Positions 2,346 through 28,960 of a stretch of DNA of 64,000 nt are shown here, in pieces. How positions within the stretch are numbered: position 1 is the first letter of the stretch; every line of letters starts with the position of its first letter. The notes under the pieces are model-generated. The model worked only from the letters and a program-made list of their open reading frames with translations, searched no databases and was not told where the DNA came from. The stretch is from Larus michahellis (taxonomy: Eukaryota > Chordata > Aves > Charadriiformes > Laridae): the NCBI RefSeq assembly GCF_964199755.1, contig NC_133901.1, positions 8,409,016-8,473,015 of the forward strand. The letters run 5' to 3'. A program made the translations under genes and the position numbers.

Positions 2346-2377
2346 CGGAGCTGAGTCCCTCTCGTCAGATGAAAAAG
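2346..2377 (+). CDS. FIIND-death gene, acidic microexon a
   Basis: The exon is 32 nt, with acceptor tccag and donor g|gtacag. It completes a codon from a missing upstream exon and then encodes GAESLSSDEK, ending in phase 1. Confidence 0.65.
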
Positions 2378-5300
2378 GTACAGTAATTTTGTGAAATACA
2401 GCACGTCAAATGGGTTTGTTATGAAAAATGCCCATCCTTTGGAACAGGAACGACGATTTTATAACTGCTGGCTTTAAAAAACACAGTGTAATGCTCTATG
2501 CTGATGAATAAGAGTTTTGATTTTTTATACTGATTTTTAAAATTCTCATTCCTTTGCTATTTATTCCCTTCCTCTGACCTGCATAGTACAAAAACGCCAA
2601 GAGAAGAGTTAAAATTTCTTTCAAGCTTATGTGCTCTGCCTGCTTTTCTCTTGCAGAGGTGGCGGCCGGCGGTGCGGAGGGAGAGGGCTCAGCCGAGGAG
2701 CACCCAGTGGGTGAGCACACCCGTGGCTGGTGGCTTTCCCCGCACGTGGGGTGGCGGGGACAGCCTCGCACCCCCCATTGCCCCTGTGATAAAACGGCAG
2801 TGTAGACACTGCTGCAACTCCTCAAGTCACTTGCTTTGCAATGCTGGTTTCTCTTCAACTTGTGCATGTGGCGCATCCCCATGAGTCATGTCACTGGTGG
2901 AACACACCGGCTCCCACTGATGCTTCTCCCATCTCATGTGAAAACCATAATTTAACAGGGTGAACTGGGATGTGCCATGGGTGAAGCTCCTAAATAGTCC
3001 CAGTTTGTATGAAATATTAAAATTAGGCATCTTGAACATCACACATACCCTTTAGAAGGGCCTGGGTGACCCCTAAGTCTTCTCTGATGCTAGGATTTGA
3101 TGCTCTGATGTTCCTCTCTGCCTCAGTGTTTTTTCTACTCTGTTACGCTATCTAACTTGCTGACCAACCTGATGTATTTAAACTTCTTATTGTACCCTTT
3201 TACTTACTTGTGGCATTGCTTTATTTCATTCTGCCTGTGATTAACGGGGTGTTGTTTTGTTAAGGAGAGGATGGTTCCGAAAACAGCTCCAGCAGTAGCT
3301 CGGAAGAGGAGTCAGGTGAGCATCGCTTCGCGGTATTTTCTCCGTTTTGAAATGTATGTTCAGTTTCAACCAGCTTCTTTTCATGGGAACGGTCTTAGGC
3401 TTATTGTATAAGACTGTTAATTCAGTGATTGCATGCTGAAAAGCAGAATGATATTATTGTGAGCAAATGATTTCCTAGCCGCTCCGTTTTGAGCAGAGCA
3501 ATAATAGAGGAGCAGCGGCTAATGTTGCTTTAGCCTCATAGACACAATACAGGCAGATGTTTTTACACCACAGTAGTTGTCCAAACACCAAGAGGCTATA
3601 AATCTGCTTAAAAGTTGGCAGCAAAAGTGGCAAAACAGGATGGACAGGAAAAGAATTAAAGGAAGCGTTTGCTGTTGATGAAAAGCCTACGGGTTTGCGC
3701 TTACATGGGTTACACCACCAGCAGTTAATTCTGGTTTCACGCGAGGTTGATAGTCTTTAGTAATCACAAACCCTTTTCTCATCAGATGCGGAGGAGTCGG
3801 ATGGAGGAAGGTCGGGTGAGTGTGCTTTTATTTTGTTCCTTGTATCCGCCTTGCAAGGCGCGGGGGAGCCAACCCCGCTGAGTGATGCGCAAAGGGAGTG
3901 AGATGCGATGGCAAGAGGCTGATTTAGTGCTGGCCCAGCCGTCACCTCCATGTCTTTCGGTACAACCCCTTGCTAGAGAGCACACCCGAGGAAAGGGGGG
4001 TGGCATGTGCCGTCCCTCGATACGCAAACAGAGCCCCGGCGCAGGGCTGTGGGCGCAGGGAGCTGCCGGTGGGAGCCGAGGGTGGCCCCGGGTCACTGCA
4101 GCCCCGCTGCAGCTCGGGGACAGAAATAGCATCGCTGCGGGCAGGGAGCCAAGGCGTTGGCGGGTGTTTGCCTGATGTTTTCCAGGCTGTTTGCTGCAGC
4201 GATACATTTTCTGCCTTCTCCCGCATCTGCCTGCTGGCCCAGGAGGGTGGTGTTGTCCCAGGGCTGGAGTCCCTGCTGGCCGGGAGGGGCGTTGGTGGGA
4301 CGGGGAGCAGGAGCGAGCAGCAAGGCGCCCGCGTCCCCGCACGCCGGCAGGCACCCCGTCACAACACCTCCTCACGACCGCTCTGCCACGCGGCTTCTGC
4401 AAAATCCACCCTTCGGGCTAAAAGCTTTTGCCCGATGCGTCAGCTCTGTTGGCTGTCGGCGGTGTTGGGTTTCGTAAGGAGGATTCAGGCACTTTTCAAT
4501 CATTTTGGGGACAAATACGTCGCTCTCGCATGCTTTCCTGCCCACTGGGAAGCACCTTTGCCAGCTTGCGTGCTGGTGATTGAACTTTGTACTTGGCATG
4601 ATAAAATTCATCGTGGGGATTAATAATTTTTTAACCCCTGTCAAAAATTTCCAGTAGTTTGGGCAAGTTATGCGATCTGGCAAATGTTGCATCCTGCACC
4701 CGCAGGCGTGCAAGTGTGCGTGCAAGAACTTCGCCTTAGGAGTATTCTCCTGGGGTATTTTTTTGATCTAAGCAAATTAAACTAGTGGGTTGTCCTGGCT
4801 GAAAATGGGAGCAGAAACTGGCTGGAGGCTGAGGTATTTGCTGCAAACTTCTTTTTTGTAGATGAGGAACAGGAGGAGAAGGAACCGCTACCGCGCTGCA
4901 ATGAATCAGGTAGTAGCAGATCTCTTGAGGGCTGGGTTTTATTTTTCTGAGCGTTGAATTACTTTGCTTTTAATGAGCTGATCTTCCTGTTTTCTCACTA
5001 GGAGTGAACTGTCTGCCACCCTGCGAGCACTGCAGAAATGTAAACGTATGTTTATAAAAAAAAAAAAACCAAAAACACCCCAAACCCCGCATATTTTGCA
5101 GGAGATAATCTGCAAATTGTAATTCTGCGCTCCCGTCACATTTTTAAATATGTATTTTTCTTTTATCTATGTAGGACCAGAAGGAGCAAGTGACCCCCAG
5201 GAGACTTGCTGGAGGACAGCATGTGTATGTTTTATTTTAATATGATGGGTATACATTTATATTGTTCTCATCAAGTTACTTCTCTCTCCAATTTAAGTGG

Positions 5301-8300
5301 GAAAAAGACTAATTTGGTGCACAAATACATTTGGAGTTATAACGGATGCCCCCAAATCCTTAAAAATAAACAATTTAGAGCAGCTTCCCTTGCTGCCTCC
5401 AGATCTTGGTCCAAGAAAGCTCTTAGGACGGCTTCCTGCCTGCCTCATCTTGCTGCAGTAATTAACATCAGGCACATTTTTATGTGCTTTTTCATTCTGG
5501 ACACACATGAGGGGTCTTGCCCTGCTTTGCAGGAATACTCGTCCTCCCCATTTGCACTGACCTTGCATTTTTTGCTGGACGCCGGCCTTGTGCTCCCTCT
5601 CTCTGGCTTGGAAGTTGTCGTGGCTGTGTGATGTCGGTGGCGTTTGTGTGTGATGTCGGTGGCGTCTGTGCGTGGTGTGGGTGTTGTCAGTGTACGATGT
5701 TGGCTCCGACATTGATGGGAGCTGGGCTGAGTCCTTCGTGTAAAAGCAGCTGCTTTGCTTGCAGGAAATGTTATGCAAAACGTTCATTACAGTTATTTTG
5801 CAGGCACTGGCTGGGTCCTCCCGGACAGTTTTTAACACTTCAGTGACGGTTTAAACATAGAACTGGAGAAAAAAAATTGTTGTGGCATCTGTGCTATCCA
5901 GATAAAGTGCTCTGTGCTTGTTGGGAAGGGAGCTTCTCTGTTATCCCTTGCAAACCACATTTTCATGGTATTTACTAGGTGGCAGAAACTAAACTAACCA
6001 GGTCACTCTTGCCCACGGCAGGGTGCAGCTGGACGCAGAGGGGACTTACCAGTGCAGCCTCACGGGCTTGATTTTTGAGGTCACAGAGGCCGTTAAAATC
6101 ACATATTCCCTCTTATCCTGGAGCAAATACGCCAACCTCGTGGAAAAGCCGTGGATCGTGGGCGGCCCTCTCTTCGACGTGCGCTGCGACTCGTCCCGCG
6201 CTCTTACCTCCATCCAGTTTCCCCACTCCCTCTGCCTCGGCGGTGAGTGCCGGCCACCGGCCTGGCGGGCGCGGGAGGCTGCCGGCTCCCCGGCGCAGGA
6301 GGCGCTGAGACATCCCCGTGTCCCCGCAGATCATGGCGCTGGCATGGCCTTCAAGGTTTTGCACATCAAAGGCGAGGGCGCAGCCATCGAGCCCTCCGCC
6401 GACTACTCGGCCTCGCACGTGAAGTGGCTGGTGAGCTCGCTCTCGCCAGTGGGACCGCTCATCCAGAGCCAGGAGCCCGTGCAGTACCATGGCGCCGTCA
6501 TCCTCTACAAAGTCGTCGACCAGCATCCCTCCTTATCCTTTCGGGTCTACGTGGCTACAAACAACGACTCCTTTATAAAGGTGTGGCTCGTGTCAGGGCT
6601 GCAGGGTGATGTGACGTAGAAACACTGGTAGGGCTGGTTATGGGGATGTTGTGTTCAGGATGGGGTACAGTGAAGAGATGCTCTTCTCTCGCCCCAGTGT
6701 TTGCATGCAAAGCTCTGGAGAGAGAAATATATATATTTTTATATATGCATAACAAGACTTCCGTACCAAAAAGGTCTGCCAACTTAGGACATGATACTTA
6801 AGCAGTTGTACCAGCCCACGTGCTCACTCCCAAGCTGCTAGAGAAAGGAAATACATCAGACACCTGTTTACCACCAAAAGCCACGGAGCTCAGGATTTAT
6901 ACCTAAAAGGGCTTGTCTTCTCACCCGTTCCCCGCTACAATATGTAGGCAAACACCAAGAAAGGACAGCAACGAATAACCTTCCTTTTACTGGGGTTGCA
7001 GACCTCTTCTATCTAATTTCACCCACGTAGCAGAACAACTGAAGAAGTTTATTTGATGTTTATTGAGGATGGTGTTTAGCGCACAGCTTTCCGTAAATTT
7101 TGCCCTGTGGAACACATCATGGACACTTCATAGAGCTGGGGACAGAGAAAAGCCCAAGGAGCCGCATTAGCACAGGTTTTAAATGTTAATTCCTTTACCG
7201 AAGTGAGTAACCTTTAAATCGTATTTTTAAATTTTAGGATATCGCAAGAGCTGTAAAACATTCAAATAAGAAATTCATTAAAATTGACAAGCCCCCTGTA
7301 TGCCAAAAATTACTACAGAACGGAAAGAGGTATAGATTAGTTTGTGAGCCAGAAGCTGAAATAACTCCAGAGGTAAGTAAGTCCCTTACACCACCCTCAT
7401 TTCATGCATTGCGGCTTCATTAGAAATGTGGTACGACGTGACTTTTCCTGCACTAGCCTTAAGGGCATTTTTCACGTTCTTTTTCCACTGCTGCAGAAAG
7501 CATTTGCCTCCTGGAGCTCTAAAATATTGGGATGAAATCTTGATGCTAAAGTCAACAGCAAAACTCTGTGAGGGTTGGAGTTGGGCTCAGATTTGTGCCA
7601 ACAGCCAAATACCTCCTCTTTAGTTTATGTTTTGGGTAAATATTTATTTTTAACATATTTACATTGCATAGGAAATTGAATTTGTTGACGGATCTCTCTT
7701 GAAACTAAAAAGTTACATTGAAGTCTATTTGGAGAAACCCGACGACTTCACCTTGTCTTTGGTTGAGCTGGAGTCTGATGCGACCGTATGGAAGGCAAAG
7801 CTACGAGAGAGTGAGTCTTTGGGCTTCCACCACGGGTTTCTTCCCGCTGGAAAGATGCAGGAGTTGGGGTATAATTCAGCCCATGGATACACTGAAATCC
7901 CTGCTGTTAAAGTGGTGAGGTTTGGAGCTGGAAGTGATAAAACACGAAGGGAAGAGCTCTGGGGGGTCACGCAGGGGATGTTGCAGTAACCTGCAGCATC
8001 CCTCCTCAGCAAACAGGCGAAGGCCTCGGGGATGCGGGCCGTGCGGGAAGACGCTCCGCTTTAGTTTTACTTACTGGGAATAATACTCAATCCTTACTGC
8101 GTATTATAGGTGGCGTGCTGCAGCACGTTGGATAAAAGGGGAAAAGTCATCTCATTAATAGAAAATCTTAGCTCAGCAGCCGGAATCCACCCAGCAGCTT
8201 GGGTTTGTGCCAGGGAGTTGCTGGATGTAGGGCACAGCAATGGGAGTTCCTGCCTCACCTTTTGTTTCCTCCGAAAACTGTTTCCCAGGTGACTGGATCC

Positions 8301-10475
8301 ATTACGATCAGAACAAAAACGAGCAGAAAAGAAGCGCAGCGGGTAAGTTGATTTGAGGCGAAGTCGGCGTTGCCTATTTTCTGTGCACCTCGCTTGCCGT
8401 TGCAGCTCGAGCGACGTGCAAGAAGTAACATCAGCTCCTGCTTGCTTTTTAGGTGTCAAAAAACGGAAAACAGCCCTCAGCGTTTCAGAAGAAGAGGAGC
8501 TCTGTAGCAAAAAGCAGAAAACCGGCAACACTGAAGGTAGAGCATTTCTGTGTCATTTTAAATAACAGGTTTGGATTGTCTTTTTGTTCTGTTTTTTTAT
8601 ATCCCAGGAATTGAACCTGAGCTCACTTCTTTTTAAGAGCGTGGGAGGCGATATAGGAGGGGAAAGCGCTGCTTTTGTAGATACGGGATTTGTATCTACA
8701 TTTGTGTGTTTTGGTACACTTTCATTCCGTTGGTAAATAAACGGGGAGAAGCAGCTAGGAAATTTGATTTAAAGGGGTCAACTAAAATGGTATTGTCTTC
8801 TAAGACTGGGCAACAGTTATGTTTTTGGAAGGAGCTTCTGCTACCTGTCTCAGATTTATTTTGCATTTGGGATGTCTCCTGAGCTATAAGCAGCTGAGTT
8901 TTTCTGAAAAAAAAAAAAAAAAAAAATGATCTCGCGTTTATTGTTGACGCGTGATGTCCGGATGGTCAGGAATGCTTGGTGTCTGGGAGCTGCCACCCAG
9001 AAACTCCTCATTTACTACTCGTTCCTTGGAAAAAAATGCAGAAGAAATAATGTTAGTTCAATAAATAATGGGAAAAAAAAAAAATCAGCAAAAGTAGCCA
9101 TGTAGCCACCAGAGGGAGAGCTTCCATCTCTCAAAACTTCAGTTGTATGTGAAATTGGTGACGCGGAGAAGGAAAGCGGCTTGCGCCGTGTAACAGCACG
9201 GGCTGAGGCTTCTGAGCCGTTGTAATTAAAAGGAAAAACAAACGTCACCTCTCTGGAGCAGCTGTAGGTTTCAGGAACAACAGGCATCTGAACTTGCTGG
9301 GAGGTAAGGAGTGCTTAGTGGGGCCTTAATGTTATATATCTCAAAATCTCTGGGTGCTTGGTAACCTAACGTACCAAGGGACGTTCTTCTGCTGGATGAA
9401 TAGCTGCTTATAAATGGGGAAAAAACCCTTTACAGCAGGAATCGTGCAATCAGATGTTGCCATCTTCATGAGCCAGGCTTCTTAGTCCTTCAGGAGCTCT
9501 TCTCCAGCGCTTGGCTCTGACCTTGATGGATAATCTGGATAATAAGATCACCTTCCTCGTATGTCCCTGGCCACGCACAAAGCTAATAAGTGTCAGTTTA
9601 ACGACAAGAGCAATGTTAAATCTGATTTTTGTTCCATGTCTTTTCAGATGGAATCGAACCAAAAACCTTAACTGATCGGCAGCTGATGGTGATCGCAAAG
9701 TTGTTTGGTCGGCAGTGGAGAGAAATCGCCATTGAGTGTCTTCAGATGGAAATGAAAGACATTGAGCAGATTCAGGCAACGGAGGAAGAAGTTAACATGC
9801 AAAAGTTTCTGCTGTTAAGCAAGTGGAGAGACAGAGAAAAAAGCAACGGAACTGCAGAAGCTTTGTACAGAAGTCTCCATGAAAAAGCACCCTATGAGAT
9901 ACTGCAAGCCCTGCAAGGTATCGCCTCCCCATTTTATTTATTTAATTACATCACTGTGTTTCAGATGTATTTTAAGAACTTGCATCGGAGAGTTTACCGA
10001 ATACCTAGTACGTGTTTTACTGTGTAGGTCAAAGTTGTCTCCCTTCTCGTATTAATAATGACTGACTGACTTGTGTCATTTTTATACTTCCCTTCAGAAA
10101 CTGATATAAAATGAACAATTTTTTGGCTGTGTTGTGAGTGCTGGGTGCGTGACCTGGCTGTCGCGGCCAAACCGGTCGGCGTTACATACCTAAACCAATT
10201 CTTGATTTTCCTCAAGGAGTCCAAAGAAGAGATGTTGGGGTCTTTATTCTTATGTATTTTAGGAACAGTTAATTAACACCTTCCCCGGCGGATGAACTTA
10301 GTGGGTCGGTCCTGCAGACCCCCGTGTGTCTGTATGTCCTTACTGCCCACGGGTGCTCCCACCGATTTCTGGGGGTCTCTTTATGTTTGGTTCACCTTGT
10401 GCAAACCACAGTTGTTCAGTGGGCTGAGAACTCAGCCAGCCGAGGGGAGCCTTTCTCAAAAACTAAATGTATGTA

Positions 10476-10512
<37 letters not shown>

Positions 10513-10731
10513 CTGGAACAGGCAAAACTTTGTTCTTTCCTAATTCTCCCTAAAAGCAACCTGCCTGTTCGTGCTCCCTCACAAACCCGTCTGCGCCACA
10601 GCCTCCTGCTGTCTCACGGGGTTTTAATACGTTTATTATTCAACTCGAATATTGCAGTAACTTGTAGAGGTCAGATAACCTCGGCGTGTTTGTGCGTGTT
10701 CCTTTCCTCAGGTTTCTCGGAGGGATGCTGA
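2346..10731 (+). CDS. FIIND (ZU5-UPA) - death domain protein, 15 exons read
   Basis: Exons: 2346-2377, 2657-2710, 3265-3315, 3786-3815, 4862-4909, 5002-5045, 5175-5224, 6022-6242, 6330-6580, 7238-7372, 7672-7810, 8289-8342, 8453-8536, 9648-9917, 10712-10731. All introns are GT-AG and the phases join to one frame of 493 residues plus stop (numbered here from the first full codon at 2347). The N-terminal end is missing. Residues 1-70 are acidic and Ser-rich. A Cys cluster lies at about 69-83. The FIIND spans about 103-352, with ZU5-type YQCSLTGLIFEV at its start and a UPA half after the cleavage site. Residues 370-397 carry two basic clusters. Residues about 403-487 form a death domain (QLMVIAKLFGRQWREIA, later WRDREKSNGTAEAL). 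FIIND proteins known in mammals (NLRP1, CARD8) end in a CARD; PIDD1 and UNC5 carry ZU5-UPA followed by a death domain. A self-processing death-signalling adaptor is inferred. I do not recognise the gene by name. It is convergent with IL12A. Confidence 0.85.
2657..2710 (+). CDS. FIIND-death gene, acidic microexon b
   Basis: The exon is 54 nt and phase 1-1, with acceptor cttgcag and donor g|gtgagc. It encodes a Glu/Gly/Ala-rich peptide including GEGSAEEHPV. Confidence 0.65.
3265..3315 (+). CDS. FIIND-death gene, Ser/Glu microexon c
   Basis: The exon is 51 nt and phase 1-1, with acceptor gttaag and donor g|gtgagc. It encodes GEDGSENSSSSSEEES, a dense casein-kinase-2-like acidic serine stretch. 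Confidence 0.7.
3786..3815 (+). CDS. FIIND-death gene, acidic microexon d
   Basis: The exon is 30 nt and phase 1-1, with acceptor atcag and donor g|gtgagt. It encodes DAEESDGGRS. Confidence 0.65.
4862..4909 (+). CDS. FIIND-death gene, acidic microexon e
   Basis: The exon is 48 nt and phase 1-1, with acceptor ttttgtag and donor g|gtagta. It encodes DEEQEEKEPLPRCNES and supplies the first Cys of the cysteine cluster. Confidence 0.7.
5002..5045 (+). CDS. FIIND-death gene, Cys-cluster exon f
   Basis: The exon is 44 nt, with acceptor tcactag and donor |gtatgt, moving the frame from phase 1 to phase 0. It encodes GVNCLPPCEHCRNVN, which contains C-x3-C-x2-C. Confidence 0.7.
5175..5224 (+). CDS. 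FIIND-death gene, exon g before the FIIND
   Basis: The exon is 50 nt, with acceptor atgtag and donor gt|gtatgt. It encodes DQKEQVTPRRLAGGQH plus two bases of the next Val. The alternative donor two bases earlier would break the FIIND frame, so the end at 5224 was chosen. Confidence 0.7.
5627..5690. repeat. Short GT-rich tandem repeat in intron
   Basis: A unit of roughly 23-25 bp based on gtgatgtcggtggcgt is repeated about twice with a degenerate third copy, inside the intron between 5224 and 6022. Confidence 0.6.
6022..6242 (+). CDS. FIIND-death gene, ZU5 (N-terminal FIIND) exon h
   Basis: The exon is 221 nt, with acceptor cggcag and donor g|gtgagt. It encodes the beginning of the FIIND, including GTYQCSLTGLIFEVTEAV. 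This matches the conserved YQC-TGL-FEV signature that opens the domain in NLRP1 and CARD8. Confidence 0.9.
6330..6580 (+). CDS. FIIND-death gene, self-cleavage-site exon i
   Basis: The exon is 251 nt, with acceptor ccccgcag and donor aag|gtgtgg. The catalytic-position His is at 6362-6364 (in VLHIKGEG). The Ser nucleophile is at 6443-6445 (in VSSLSPVG), exactly 27 residues later. The rest begins the UPA half (AVILYKVV, FRVYVATN). Confidence 0.9.
7238..7372 (+). CDS. FIIND-death gene, UPA exon j
   Basis: The exon is 135 nt and phase 0-0, with acceptor attttag and donor gag|gtaagt. It encodes FIKIDKPPVCQKLLQNGKRY, equivalent to the FVRIHKPP stretch of NLRP1. Confidence 0.9.
7672..7810 (+). CDS. 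FIIND-death gene, UPA end exon k
   Basis: The exon is 139 nt, with acceptor ttgcatag and donor a|gtgagt. It encodes the end of the UPA half, including LKSYIEVYL and ATVWKAKLRE. The latter corresponds to the TLVWEALVK segment that closes the domain in NLRP1. Confidence 0.9.
8289..8342 (+). CDS. FIIND-death gene, linker exon l
   Basis: The exon is 54 nt and phase 1-1, with acceptor tttcccag and donor g|gtaagt. It encodes SDWIHYDQNKNEQKRSAA, a charged linker following the UPA half. Confidence 0.8.
8453..8536 (+). CDS. FIIND-death gene, basic NLS-like linker exon m
   Basis: The exon is 84 nt and phase 1-1, with acceptor ctttttag and donor g|gtagag. It encodes GVKKRKTALSVS, an EEEE run, and SKKQKTGNTE. 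The two basic clusters about 13 residues apart resemble a bipartite nuclear localisation signal. Confidence 0.85.
8906..8926. repeat. Poly-A tract in intron
   Basis: A run of about 20 A residues lies in the large intron before the death-domain exon. The flanking sequence does not reveal a recognisable retroposed gene. Confidence 0.7.
9648..9917 (+). CDS. FIIND-death gene, death domain exon n
   Basis: The exon is 270 nt, with acceptor cttttcag and donor g|gtatcg. It encodes the whole death-fold domain: helix 1 LTDRQLMVIAKLFGRQWREI, helices 2-4 including MEMKDIEQIQATEEE, then LLLSKWRDREKSNGTAEALY and a final helix ending LQALQ. The GRxWREIA and W-N-GTAEAL pattern is characteristic of death domains and does not fit the CARD that follows FIIND in NLRP1 and CARD8. 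Confidence 0.9.
10474..10512. repeat. (TA)n microsatellite followed by T run
   Basis: About 12 TA dinucleotides run directly into about 15 T residues, in the last intron of the FIIND-death gene. Confidence 0.9.
10712..10731 (+). CDS. FIIND-death gene, probable terminal coding exon o
   Basis: An acceptor ctttcctcag fits phase 1 and adds GFSEGC before a TGA, ending the protein just after the death domain. The alternative is reading through the donor at 9917, which stays open to a TAG at 10027 and adds about 36 residues. The spliced form is favoured because the acceptor is strong and well placed. Confidence 0.55.
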
Positions 10732-13761: not shown

Positions 13762-16700
13762 CTGGGAAAAGGTAAGGGCGTTACAAAACGATCACCAGAA
13801 AGTGGCTAAAAAAAAAGACCTCTTTAGCTTTTTCAACCCCTGAGCGATAAATGAGAAGACTTAGAAAGAAGAATGCATTCTCATAAATGAGAAGTTTAAA
13901 ATATTTAATTATATAATTAATATTTAGTAGTAAGCCAGCTGTACTTTCCTTGGGCTAAAAACATCCATTCACGTACAAAGGCTCTTTCTGACTAAGAATA
14001 AAGATGCTTTTTTAATAATAAGCCTACGGCCAGCTTTGTCTAGTGACCCCTTAGGCTGAGCTCATCTGCCCATGGCCAGAATCTCCAAGCTATTGTGAGA
14101 CGCTGTGCCGATACAAAGGCAATTAACTTTTTTTTTTTTTTAGTTAGCTTTTGTTAAACAAACAAACAAGCTTTTAGCATCTATTCCCTCTGCTCACCAG
14201 TAATACTTCTCAAAGTTCAGTACACCCTATGTCATATTCAGTATACCAGGTGTATTATATTTCTGTATTTGGAAGAGAAATAGAGCTATGTCCCTTTTAC
14301 TCTATCTTTTATTCTATTTTTGAGTTCTCTGAGGAACTGGCAGACAATCCTGTACCCCATCTCCTTGCGGGAGCGGAGCAGTGAGAAAGAAGGATTGCTG
14401 CTAAGGAGCCATACATCCGAGTCCTGATGCGTTGACCATATTATATCAGCAAGGCAAAAATAGGAAGTGCGAGACACAATTCATGAGCATCAAGTCCCTT
14501 CTAGGAAAAACATTAACAGGTAATTTTTTAAATTACCAGATTAAAGAAAGGTCACTGTTCGACTGACTACAGAAAGGAGGAAACTGGATTAAAAACTCTG
14601 GTTTAAGACAGGAATAGTAGAAAGGAAGGAGACCGGAATACTTACTTTCATCATTTCATCAATAGCTGCCAGCACCTTTTGATCATTGAAGTTCTTCAGC
14701 TCTGCCCTGTAGGCGTTCAGATCCTCGTAGATGCCCTGCAGGCATTTACTCTGCAAACATCAGAATTATTAGGAAGTGCAGGAAGCTGTTGTTACACGCT
14801 TTAAACGCACAACAGGCAAAAGGAAGGGTTCTTTGGGGAAACCTGCAATTTACCGTATCAAAAGTAGATCTTTCCAGTGCTGTACAGTTTCCAGTCTGCA
14901 AGTTAAAGAAGAAACGAGACATGGTGATTTTGTGGAAGTGTGAATTATGTATGTCTACTATGTTCCACGAAAATATGATGCTGAAACTGGATATGTTTTT
15001 TTTTTTTACCCCTGTATCTTCAGATATACAAGCTTTTATCGTGTTGATGTGATTCTTCGTGATATCTTCAAGATCAATCTCTTCAAGGATACATTCAAAT
15101 CCCAGGGTGTTGAGCTCCTGTGTTAAAAAGGGCGTAAAAAAGGGTCATTGACACAGCTTCATGGCACTGTGCATATGTATGTAAATAAACACAATTATAA
15201 GTGATGTGTCACAGCTGCCTGTGCTTTGCTGAATCCTAGGAATGAGGCTGTGTGAGGACTACGGTTCAGTACAAAAGCTAGAAAACAGAGACTGAAATGC
15301 ATGTGGCAGTTGCGTTTAATGGGAATAAGCTCAGGCTTTGCACAGATTTGGTTTATGTGTTGTTGCGAGTTGCACTGCCTCCATTACTTTAAATTATCTT
15401 CTCAGACACCAAATCTATTGAGAGCTTTATGTTGCTATAGTTTCAAATGTAAAGTATCTCTTAGAATGTGAAAAACAATGAATACCATCCGCATAGACAT
15501 TTAACAGTGCTAACTGACCCGCTGCAAGCGAGGCGCAATGCACCTATTTAGTGGTAGGGGATTTTGCGGTTCTCTGAGGTGAAGCTTATTAACAATAGCA
15601 GGGAATTTTAGCAAAAAAAAAAAAAAAAAAATCCCCTTGGCACTACTGACAGGGAGCTTTAGTGCAGAAAGATGCTACTGCACCAAGCCAATGACACCAG
15701 CAACAACGAGCGAACACTACAGCAGTGTCGGAACCAGGTATTTCCTGAGCCAGCTCTGCAGGCGCCTCAGAGCGAAAATGAGAGTGCTCGATCGGCCGTT
15801 GCTGTGCTGCCAGCGCCACTAACGCTGTGGTGTTTCTGTGGGGGTCAGTGAACAAGGGTTGAAAAAGACACCTGAGTAAATCCCCATCTTAAAGGGCTGG
15901 TCAAGGGAGGCACGCAAGCAAAGATCAGGTATGGAGTCCTAAAGAGAGTCTACAGAGAGCATCCACCCTCCAGCAACACATCACTGCCCTCCTGGATACC
16001 GTCACTGCCCCATCACTGCCTGGTTGGGTACCCTCGCCAAACCATCACCTCCTGCCTGGGTACCATCACTGCCCCGTCACTGCCTGGGTAGGTACCGTCA
16101 CCAACCCATCACCTCCTGCCTGGATACCCTCACCAACCCATCACCACCGTCCTGGGTAGGGACCCTCACCAACCCATCACCTCCTGCCTGAATACCATCA
16201 TCGTCTGCCTGGGTACCCTCACCAACCCATCACCACCCTCCTGGGTACCCTCACCCACCCATCACCTCCTGCCTGGGTACCATCACTGTCCCACCACTGC
16301 CACTGCCTGGGTAGGTACCCTCACCATCCCATCACCTCCTGCCTGGGTACCACCACCACCCTCCTGGGCACCCTCACCACCCCATCACCGCCCTCCCGGG
16401 TACCCTCACCAACCCATCACCGCCCATCTGGGTACCACCGCTGCCCTCCTGGGTACCATCACCGTCCCATCATCGCCTGCCCCTGTCCCCTCACCAACCC
16501 ACTCCCCGCCCCGGCCCGTTTCTCGCCGGGCCCCTGGCAGACCTTCAGCCGGTGGAGGGAGGCCTTGGCGGCCTCCAGCATCTCCCGGGAGCGGCTCAGC
16601 CCCTCGGCGAGGCGGTGGCGGGGGGGCGGCGGCAGCGCCCGGACGGGTGTCAGCAGGGCCAGCGCAAGGCAGAGCCTGGGCAGCAGCGCCCAGGGCCCGC

Positions 16701-16800
16701 ACCGCTGCCTGCACACCCGTCCGGCGGCGCTGCGGGGCGCTGCCTGCCCGCCGCTGCCCGCGCTGCCCGCGCTGCCCGCGCTGCTGCCGCGCTGCTCCAT
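13594..16800 (-). CDS. IL12A: Interleukin-12 subunit alpha (p35)
   Basis: Five coding exons on the - strand, all phase 0-0: 16543-16800, 15010-15117, 14854-14895, 14646-14750, 13594-13761, giving 226 residues. Residues about 36-56 form a hydrophobic leader core ([14 protein letters not shown]) after an unusual Ser/Gly/Ala-rich start; no later Met precedes it. The four-helix cytokine core is clear: [35 protein letters not shown] and the near-invariant [22 protein letters not shown]. The protein pairs by disulphide with IL-12 p40 (or with EBI3 as IL-35) and is secreted to drive Th1 and interferon-gamma responses. Cys at 95, 116, 126, 139 and 199 match the human FYPC, EAC, ESC, ALC and KLC cysteines; Cys126 is the expected link to p40. 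A glycosylation sequon N-C-T is at 125-127. The gene sits next to SCHIP1 as in mammals. Confidence 0.96.
13762..14645. other. IL12A: IL12A intron 4
   Basis: This AT-rich intron of 884 bp has a T run at about 14,128. No additional exon was seen. Confidence 0.7.
14646..14750 (-). CDS. IL12A: IL12A exon 4 (coding)
   Basis: The exon is 105 nt and phase 0-0, with acceptor gtttgcag and donor aaa|gtaag. It encodes [19 protein letters not shown] and continues to AAIDEMMK, equivalent to human LCLSSIYEDLK through AVIDELMQ. Confidence 0.95.
14854..14895 (-). CDS. IL12A: IL12A 42-nt microexon (interchain Cys)
   Basis: The exon is 42 nt and phase 0-0, with acceptor cttgcag and donor acg|gtaaat. It encodes [14 protein letters not shown], matching the human ESCLNSRETSFIT segment that carries the Cys bonded to p40. 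Introns on either side are only 103 and 114 bp. Confidence 0.9.
15010..15117 (-). CDS. IL12A: IL12A exon 2 (coding)
   Basis: The exon is 108 nt and phase 0-0, with acceptor ttaacacag and donor ggg|gtaaaa. It encodes [20 protein letters not shown] through ACISEDTG, equivalent to human FYPCTSEEIDHEDITK. Confidence 0.95.
15118..16542. other. IL12A: IL12A intron 1
   Basis: This intron of 1.4 kb has an A run at 15,614-15,631 and a GGTACC-rich minisatellite filling its first third in transcript order (15,960-16,500). No exon was seen. Confidence 0.7.
15960..16500. repeat. Minisatellite, unit about 32 bp
   Basis: About 15 degenerate copies or half-copies of a unit built from aacccatcacctcc, tgcctgggtacc and ctcacc fill this interval. 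Many copies carry the KpnI hexamer ggtacc. Units differ by substitutions and by half-unit insertions such as atcactgcccc. The array ends about 40 bp before the IL12A exon 1 donor. Confidence 0.9.
16543..16800 (-). CDS. IL12A: IL12A first coding exon (signal peptide)
   Basis: The exon is 258 nt from ATG (16798-16800) to donor aag|gtctgc. It is very GC-rich. It encodes a low-complexity GSAGSAGS start, the hydrophobic leader, and the first mature helix ending ASLHRLK. No other in-frame Met precedes the leader, which supports this start. Confidence 0.85.
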
Positions 16801-16845
16801 CCCGCTGCCGAGGGAGAGGTGCCGGGGACGGAGGGACGGCGCCGG

Positions 16846-16853
16846 CTTTTATG
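16846..16853 (-). promoter_or_regulatory. IL12A: IL12A TATA box
   Basis: CATAAAAG on the - strand lies 46 bp upstream of the ATG, in an otherwise GC-rich stretch. Initiation 25-30 bp downstream would leave a 5' UTR of only about 20 nt. Confidence 0.55.
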
Positions 16854-27200: not shown

Positions 27201-27950
27201 CCCAGATATGATTGTGCAACCTGTAGGCACATCTTCCAACCCAAAACATCTGCTGCAGGCTCTTGACCTGTGCTTGGACATGGGGGCTGGTGTCCCTTTT
27301 CATCCCAGACCTCATATTCCAAGGCAGCAGGAAGATGCAGGATGGGTGGTCTTGCACAGTGACATGGATCCCTTCCCGACGCCCAAAAGTAAATCTCCAT
27401 GTGGTTTGGAGCTGCAGAGCTCTGCAGAGTGCCTCGCCAGCTCTTAGTCTTGCTTTGGTGGGGTCGGTCTCCTACAGCCTTGGCTGCAGCCTTTGGTGCT
27501 GGTTACTCCAGCAAAACTCCCTGAGGGTCTGATGGGAGTTTTCCAAACTAGTGCCTGTTTGGGGGTGTCAGCCCTACCTCCATGGTGGGCTGAGGCCAAC
27601 ACCTGGGAAAATTCCTCCTCCCACAGCTCTGTCGGCAGTTTCACCGCTGGGAGGTGGAGGAGTGCTGAGCCAGCTGCCTGGAAACGGCTGCTGCATGCAG
27701 GCTGTCAGCTCAGGAGATCCATGTGAAACCTTGCAATTCCCTTTTTTCATACAGCCGTGACTATTTCACTTCTCTTTTGATGTCGTGTTTCTTCCCTGAA
27801 CACGCTGTCCTTAGGAAGCCAGAGGGTAGGTGGGTATGGTGCTGAGCAGCATTGTGTCCAGGCTCTGCTGCCAGTCTTTCATGGCGGTTGCTCCATCAGC
27901 AACAGAGCCAGCATCCCAATATAGCATCAAATACTGGAAATTTAGTATTT
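18279..27950. other. Intergenic region between IL12A and SCHIP1, left part
   Basis: No gene was recognised on either strand. Open frames up to about 200 codons occur but show no domain, no splice-consistent partners and no homology I recognise. It contains a two-copy AT-rich duplication at 21,582-21,635, A runs at 23,442-23,453 and 23,981-23,996, and otherwise apparently unique sequence. Regulatory elements may exist but none can be named. Confidence 0.5.
21582..21635. repeat. AT-rich two-copy tandem duplication
   Basis: The block ataattatgcaataatttta occurs twice about 27 bp apart, separated by a tata stretch. Confidence 0.75.
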
Positions 27951-27955
27951 GCAGA

Positions 27956-28960
27956 GTCTAGTTGGAGTCACAGAGCCTAGTTGGAGGCCTATAGCTACCG
28001 GTGTTCCCCAGTACTGGTCAGTACTGGGTCCAGTCCTGTTCCACATATTCATCAATGACCTGGATGAGGGGACAGAGTGTACCTTCAGTAAGTTTGCTGA
28101 TGATACAAGACTGGGAGGAGTGGCTGACACACCAGAAGGCTGTGCCTTCTGTTCAGTGAGACCTGGACAGGCTAGAGAGTTGGGTGGAGAGGAACCCAAT
28201 GAAGTTCAACACAAGCAAGTGTAGGATTCTGCACCTGGGGAGGAATAACTGCATGCATCAGGTCAGGTTAGGGGTTGACTCGCTGGAAAGCAGCTCTGCA
28301 GAGAGGGACCTGGGAGTCCTGGTGGACAACAAGTTGACCATGAGCCAGCAATGATGTGCCCTCGTGGCCAAGAAAGCCAATGGTATCCTGGGGTGCATCA
28401 AGAAGAGTATGGCCAGCAGGTCAAGGGAGGTCATCGTTCCCCTCTGCTCTGCCCTGGTGAGGCCACATCTAGAGTATTGTGTCCAGTTCTGGGCTCCCCA
28501 GTTCAAGAAAGACAAGGAACTACTGGAGAGGGTCCAGTGAAGGGCTACGAAGATGAGCAGGGAACTCGAGCATCTCTTTTATGAGGAAAGGCGGAGAGAC
28601 CTGGAGAAGACTGAAAGGGGATCTCATCAACACTTACCAATCTCTAAAGGGTGGGTGTCAAGAGGATGGAGACAGACACTTCTCAGTGGTGCCCAGCAAC
28701 AGGACAAGGGGCAATGGGCACGAACTGGAACACAGGAAATTCCATGTCAACACGAGGAAAAAAACTTCTTTACTTTGAGGGTGACAGAGCCCTGGCACAG
28801 GCTGCCCAGAGAGGTGGTGGAGTCTCCTCTGGAGATATTCAAAACCCGCCTGGATGTGTTGCTGTGCAACCTGCTGTGGGTGACCCTGCTTTGGCAGGGG
28901 GGTTGGCCGAGATGATCTCTGAAGGTCCCTTCCAACCCTACCATTCTGTGATTCTGTGAA
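27956..28960 (+). mobile_element. CR1 LINE, 5'-truncated copy of about 1 kb
   Basis: The copy starts near cctagttggagg and ends ccattctgtgattctgtgaa, the CR1 3' hallmark. Translated fragments include [20 protein letters not shown] and the reverse-transcriptase catalytic FADDT, then thumb and C-terminal pieces in shifted frames. It is therefore a dead copy. It shares the 3' 420 bp with the inverted copy at 17.45-17.87 kb. Confidence 0.93.

What the first reader, a model, noticed from the sequence alone, without database searches (positions are those of the whole stretch)
2346..10731. A bird gene joining a FIIND domain to a death domain, next to IL12A
Fifteen exons with canonical splice sites and matching phases give acidic region - Cys cluster - FIIND (ZU5-UPA) - basic linker - death domain. 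Mammalian FIIND proteins NLRP1 and CARD8 end in a CARD. ZU5-UPA-death domain order is known from PIDD1, UNC5 and ankyrins, but here the ZU5 half has the NLRP1/CARD8-like YQC-TGL-FEV signature. I know of no such gene in mammals at the IL12A-SCHIP1 locus. It could be an innate-immune sensor or adaptor kept in birds and lost in mammals.
Basis: partly seen in the sequence, partly recalled or inferred. Interest (0 to 1): 0.88.

Follow-up and report, generated by a model that had tools for sequence, protein, structure and literature searches.

The report
Third FIIND gene, with death domain
A real, well-conserved bird gene joins the self-cutting FIIND module of the NLRP1 and CARD8 inflammasome sensors to a death domain instead of a CARD; relatives turn up in fish, an amphibian, reptiles and many mammals under misleading names, but none was seen from the group that includes humans and mice.

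Summary
Fifteen exons at 2346-10731 (+), with canonical splice sites and matching phases, encode acidic tail, Cys cluster, FIIND (ZU5-UPA), basic linker and death domain (DD). All three domains pass Pfam cut-offs. The canonical first coding exon lies 5' of the window (503 aa in all). An IL12A exon lies nearby.

It is not a bird gene lost in mammals: relatives occur in turtles, alligator, squamates, echidna, marsupials, xenarthrans, many laurasiatherians, a caecilian and two teleosts, under names such as CARD8 or NLRP1-like. No primate, rodent or afrothere was named among the rows listed. The same genome also holds two FIIND-CARD genes, and a tree splits the two types at 100/100. So this is a third FIIND lineage, against a 2025 statement that NLRP1 and CARD8 are the only mammalian FIIND proteins. 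Ten literature searches showed no description of it.

The autoprocessing His and Ser are invariant (48 of 48 proteins), but Leu (47 of 48), not Phe, precedes the cut. Best reading: FIIND cuts itself, ZU5 holds UPA-DD, and release gives a nuclear-targeted UPA-DD nucleator of a caspase complex. Cleavage, release and partner are inferred.

The parts
2657..2710 (+). coding exon, acidic/serine-rich region
3265..3315 (+). coding exon, acidic/serine-rich region
3786..3815 (+). coding exon, acidic region
4862..4909 (+). coding exon, acidic region and first Cys of the cluster (4897-4899)
5002..5045 (+). coding exon, Cys cluster (last Cys codon 5031-5033)
5175..5224 (+). coding exon before ZU5; donor at 5225 (gtatgt)
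6022..6242 (+). coding exon, ZU5 half of FIIND; His codon 6224-6226 aligns with CARD8 His252
6330..6580 (+). coding exon, end of ZU5 and start of UPA; codon aligned with CARD8 His270 at 6362-6364, with Glu279 at 6389-6391, predicted cut between Leu 6440-6442 and Ser 6443-6445
7238..7372 (+). coding exon, UPA
7672..7810 (+). coding exon, end of UPA
8289..8342 (+). coding exon, linker
8453..8536 (+). coding exon, linker with two basic clusters (KKRK from 8458, KKQK ends 8520), bipartite nuclear-localisation-like (label recalled)
9648..9917 (+). coding exon, death domain
10712..10731 (+). last coding exon (FSEGC, stop)
14749..15144 (-). neighbour: open frame holding an IL12A exon (PF03039, just above cut-off)

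Best explanation
The gene encodes a 503-aa member of a third vertebrate FIIND lineage, FIIND-DD, with a DD in place of the CARD of NLRP1/CARD8. Most likely working: (1) FIIND folds as ZU5-UPA (model and homology); (2) it cuts itself at Leu|Ser-Pro-Val using the conserved His and Ser (inferred, about 0.6); (3) ZU5 and the disordered acidic N-terminus hold the UPA-linker-DD fragment silent, perhaps with DPP8/9 docking on the Ser-Pro neo-terminus (inferred, about 0.45); (4) loss of the N-terminal half frees UPA-NLS-DD, the UPA clusters the DDs and these nucleate an adaptor-caspase complex of RAIDD/FADD kind (inferred, about 0.35), possibly in the nucleus since the basic linker stays on the released half.
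Confidence: 0.5

Rival explanations
1. Cleavage-dead scaffold: FIIND-DD is a permanently closed ZU5-UPA-DD supramodule like UNC5b or ankyrin, acting as an adaptor opened by ligand binding or modification rather than by autoprocessing and degradation.
Against: The other residues important in CARD8 (His252, His270, Glu279, Ser297) have identical partners in 48 of 48 and, by eye, in the amphibian and two fish proteins, which a dead site would not need; one turtle (P0057) has Phe; the fold is nearer NLRP1/CARD8.
Confidence: 0.3
2. Pathogen-protease tripwire: the acidic disordered N-terminus is bait for pathogen proteases, and its cleavage leads to loss of the N-terminal half and DD signalling, as in CARD8/NLRP1.
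For: The N-terminus has pLDDT about 30 in both models and is the least conserved part; CARD8 and NLRP1 use such tripwires (passages of PMC10249858).
Against: No cut site or selection test was possible; within amniotes the DD-type FIIND branches are short and the CARD-type ones long (the CARD-type rows are not strict orthologues, so this is a rough contrast).
Confidence: 0.2
3. Nuclear regulator related to THOC1 (p84): the DD and basic linker place it in the nucleus, with a role in RNA handling or nuclear cell-death signalling; the FIIND serves only for dimerisation.
For: THOC1 is the best DD match by sequence and its match extends into the basic linker; two basic clusters are kept in the 48 aligned proteins with small variations (by eye).
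Against: Ankyrin-3 is close behind (1.1e-8 against 1.5e-10); by structure FADD, RIPK1 and RAIDD are as near; the DD subfamily was not resolved by a tree.
Confidence: 0.15
4. Gene-model artefact: FIIND exons and the DD exon belong to two genes.
For: The first-stage model was made by eye; no RNA reads were seen.
Against: Same joined architecture in proteins from fish to mammals; short contigs hold both in one frame, 5 of 5; phases match.
Confidence: 0.02

Closest known systems
CARD8 (human; PDB 7jkq, 7jn7)
   Same: FIIND ZU5-UPA behind a disordered N-terminus; aligned His/Ser of autoprocessing; similar size; sources name many FIIND-DD proteins CARD8
   Different: ends in a CARD; SF|S cut site followed by Leu; separate side of the tree at 100/100 support
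NLRP1 (rat 7crw/7crv, human 6x6c)
   Same: FIIND best structural and sequence match; Ser-Pro after the cut
   Different: NACHT-LRR in front (PYD in human), CARD behind, Phe before the cut
PIDD1
   Same: ZU5-UPA-death domain order and autoprocessing at HF/S (PMC3210808 passages); stress-signalling scaffold (recalled)
   Different: leucine-rich repeats; none found in FIIND-DD
UNC5B and ankyrins (3g5b, 4d8o)
   Same: ZU5-UPA-DD order; Leu at the cut position in UNC5b
   Different: here FIIND-type ZU5/UPA by Pfam; no transmembrane or ankyrin-repeat family matched; lower Z
TRADD-N proteins with FIIND (PMC8195603, passages) and 'ded' FIIND proteins in PMC3210808
   Same: printed cases of FIIND joined to other domains of the death-signalling kind
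   Different: TRADD-N or DED partners, not this DD; the 'ded' set shares SFS and at least 47% identity with CARD8
THOC1 death domain (1wxp)
   Same: closest DD by sequence; nuclear protein
   Different: THO complex subunit; no FIIND (recalled)

Membership tests
FIIND proteins (PF13553 + PF23679) | Pfam FIIND and UPA-FIIND matches above curated cut-off | tested here: met
   121.6 bits (cut-off 25.8) and 90.5 (27)
FIIND proteins (PF13553 + PF23679) | ZU5-UPA fold as in NLRP1/CARD8 | tested here: met
FIIND proteins (PF13553 + PF23679) | catalytic His and nucleophile Ser | tested here: met
   48 of 48 selected proteins
FIIND proteins (PF13553 + PF23679) | SF|S autoprocessing motif | tested here: not met
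   SL|S; Leu in 47 of 48, Phe in 1 (P0057)
FIIND proteins (PF13553 + PF23679) | autoproteolysis | not testable with these tools
   needs protein
CARD8 / NLRP1 inflammasome sensors | C-terminal CARD | tested here: not met
   7 of 7 family proteins scanned have Death as their last domain, none a C-terminal CARD (P0160 has a CARD, but at its N-terminus)
CARD8 / NLRP1 inflammasome sensors | FIIND groups with NLRP1/CARD8 FIINDs in a tree | tested here: not met
   20 DD-type rows and 4 CARD-type rows split 100/100; same split without the own C17 row
CARD8 / NLRP1 inflammasome sensors | DPP8/9 binding | not testable with these tools
   the Ser-Pro neo-terminus is compatible, no more
PIDD1 | leucine-rich repeats and two ZU5 domains | tested here: not met
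   only FIIND, UPA-FIIND and Death matched in P0001
Death domain superfamily | PF00531 match and six-helix bundle | tested here: met
   27.9 bits (cut-off 22.6); six helices 418-503 of the P0055 model

The most novel reading that the evidence does not exclude
A vertebrate-wide third FIIND signalling system: an autoprocessing FIIND with a Leu|Ser site that, on loss of its N-terminal half, releases a nuclear-targeted UPA-death-domain fragment which nucleates a caspase-activating complex parallel to the PIDDosome and to the NLRP1/CARD8 inflammasomes, kept from bony fish to many mammals but missing in the primate-rodent group and therefore never studied.
Probability: 0.33. Interest if true: 0.9.

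Novelty: new variant of a known kind. Interest (0 to 1): 0.74.

Why it matters
FIIND biology (DPP9 checkpoint, protease sensing, pyroptosis) is built on two human proteins. A third, slowly evolving FIIND lineage with a death domain changes the evolutionary picture (FIIND joined to two different death folds in vertebrates), offers a natural Phe-to-Leu test of FIIND autoproteolysis, and supplies a possible non-CARD output. It is listed for dog, cat, horse, yak, bison, sheep, warthog and bats, often under the names CARD8 or NLRP1, so studies of those genes outside human and mouse could confuse them: the dog longevity hit reported as 'NLRP1 like' is this gene.

Tried and rejected
Considered and rejected: orthologue of CARD8 or NLRP1 (tree, and separate FIIND-CARD genes in the same genome); gene-model artefact; bird-only gene.

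Led nowhere or weak: Pfam on 16462-16848 minus (guessed first IL12A exon) found nothing at E 0.01. The first structure model had a poor UPA. A SCHIP1 search in the own genome did not complete, nor whole-genome searches for UPA-FIIND and Death (82, 87). A DD tree was not made. dN/dS was not computed for want of coding DNA of relatives. I saw no PIDD ZU5 among the rows shown by Foldseek or VIA-align; this excludes nothing.

Limits of the distribution claim: one search listed 120 of 347 hits, one search listed 120 of 260, one search listed 8 of 8. The fish and caecilian members came from one length-shifted search, so how common they are in fish and amphibians is unknown.
Full report
WHAT IS THERE. 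The joined frame gives 493 aa. Pfam finds FIIND (residues 103-226, 2.2e-35), UPA-FIIND (230-348, 1.4e-25) and Death (409-487, 2.5e-6), all above cut-off. By sequence the FIIND part finds NLRP1 (best 6e-19) and CARD8, and the DD part finds THOC1 (2e-7) and ankyrins in the PDB. A predicted protein of Rissa tridactyla is 99% identical over residues 100-490, so the window is from a gull-like bird (inference). Several bird models begin MSRRGQE or nearly so, an exon not in the window. In the window's own genome it lies just upstream: MSRRGQEPDS, window coordinate -281, donor GTGAGC, correct phase, in a CpG-rich stretch. The full protein is therefore 503 aa in 16 coding exons; the ATG at 2275 used by the predicted Rissa isoform is an alternative start.

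EVIDENCE OF TRANSCRIPTION. The five 'lgn' proteins listed (312 to 501 aa) come from contigs of at most 1,422 to 2,546 bases; 5 of 5 hold UPA, basic linker and DD in one reading frame, by eye. In the window exons 8-15 alone span 4,710 bases. Spliced RNA is the simplest source; a retrocopy is not excluded. I did not see reads.

DISTRIBUTION. With the gull-type query, 347 proteins matched and 120 were listed: birds, turtles, alligator, squamates, echidna, marsupials and placentals. With a sloth-armadillo profile, 260 matched and 120 were listed. Apart from four shorter named mammal rows (310 to 449 aa), the named mammal rows come before the first reptile row, and they are Xenarthra, Cetartiodactyla, Perissodactyla, Carnivora, Pholidota, Chiroptera, Eulipotyphla, marsupials and echidna (orders recalled). 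A long-query search (8 of 8 listed) added a caecilian, Rhinatrema (60% identity), and two teleosts, Lucifuga (46%) and Girardinichthys (38%). So the lineage seems at least as old as bony vertebrates, and lost in the group holding human and mouse (inference). Names given by the sources include 'CARD8', 'NLRP1a/b-like' and 'uncharacterized'.

SYNTENY. A reverse-strand IL12A exon lies at 14749-15144 (PF03039 1.3e-5, just above cut-off; IL-12 alpha chains E 0.009 in the PDB, with an unrelated chain at 0.012). In dog, LOC102153616 is one of the relatives listed (P0100). A GWAS paper (PMC11737349, passages seen) puts that locus, which it calls 'NLRP1 like', at chr34:26.17 Mb, between its IQCJ-SCHIP1 SNPs (25.66 and 26.01 Mb) and its B3GALNT1 SNP (27.10 Mb). 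The passages do not mention IL12A (0 occurrences in the text); that IL12A lies in this interval in human is recalled. [quoted passage not shown] neighbouring genes are hits too, so the gene is not singled out.

NOT CARD8, NOT NLRP1. The own genome (1.4 Gb) has six FIIND exon matches: two of this gene and four on contig C17. The C17 matches are two inverted copies, 98.0% identical over 11.7 kb (98.2% over 7.9 kb). The plus copy has NPSF|SALG at the cut site, UPA pieces (29.3 and 21.1 bits, cut-off 27) and, about 5.9 kb beyond the FIIND's second exon, a CARD (PF00619 2.2e-13); the minus copy has the CARD stretch at 98.5% identity. A tree of 24 FIIND sequences splits 20 DD-type rows, including the fish, from the four CARD-type rows (rat and human NLRP1, human CARD8, own C17) at 100/100. 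The tool warns that joins with the long own-C17 row may be false; without that row (22 sequences) the same split has 100/100. Within amniotes the DD type has short branches and the CARD type long ones. [quoted passage not shown] The 2011 FIIND alignment (PMC3210808, passages) had a 'completely conserved SFS motif' and a most remote member, 'Dog_ded', at 47% identity to CARD8; on that description this family was not in it. FIIND joined to TRADD-N domains has been reported (PMC8195603, passages). My ten paper searches showed no description of this FIIND-DD gene. I looked at passages or sections of ten papers and only at the listing of the others; most papers of subscription journals and all bioRxiv preprints are not held.

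ACTIVE SITE. In 48 aligned family proteins (chosen by me from the 157 ids then known) the residues aligned with CARD8 His252, His270, Glu279 and Ser297 are identical in 48 of 48; the residue aligned with Ser295 is Ser in 47; Leu stands in place of Phe296 in 47, with Phe in Dermochelys P0057; Pro-Val follows in 48 of 48. The caecilian and both fish also read Leu-Ser-Pro-Val (by eye). CARD8 F296H was severely defective, and the position is Leu677 in UNC5b, so the Leu argues for caution. The invariant His and Ser argue for a working site. Rat and human NLRP1 also begin Ser-Pro after the cut and CARD8 Ser-Leu; in the NLRP1-DPP9 structure the UPA N-terminal loop blocks the DPP9 substrate groove (PMC8081665 passages).

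HOW IT LIKELY WORKS. By analogy with NLRP1/CARD8 (UPA lowers the threshold of CARD filaments; PMC7794386 passages), the released half here would be UPA-NLS-DD. Domain order and structure suggest a PIDDosome-like or FADD-like output. The teleost prediction P0160 joins a CARD-caspase nearest caspase-1 (4e-49) to FIIND-UPA-DD, which links the family to an inflammatory caspase if it is not two merged gene models. Shown here: architecture, homology, conservation, distribution among listed rows. Inferred: cleavage, inhibition, release, partner, nucleus.

Noticed in passing
G000:C17:531200-538983 (+) and the inverted copy around 789792-791480 (loci L001, L002, L007-L010): Two inverted near-identical copies (98.0% over 11.7 kb, about 258 kb apart) of a FIIND-UPA-CARD gene; the plus copy read has an SF|S site. 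So this bird has FIIND-CARD genes too.
   Followed up: partly
P0160 (Girardinichthys multiradiatus): Predicted protein CARD - caspase (nearest caspase-1) - FIIND - UPA - Death: natural fusion or merged neighbours.
   Followed up: partly
P0159 (Lucifuga dentata): Three near-identical tandem death domains behind one FIIND; tandem exon duplication or assembly error.
   Followed up: no
P0057 (Dermochelys coriacea): Only member of 48 with Phe before the cut Ser; a natural Leu/Phe swap to test.
   Followed up: no
dog chr34:26.17 Mb (PMC11737349): Longevity-associated intronic SNP in the dog relative, reported as 'NLRP1 like'.
   Followed up: no
window 15965-16511: GC-rich minisatellite arrays (periods 32, 38, 64, 85, 155) between the IL12A exon at 14749-15144 and the presumed, unverified IL12A first exon on the minus strand.
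   Followed up: no
window 27946-28221: Open frame resembling reverse transcriptase of a CR1-type LINE (label recalled).
   Followed up: no
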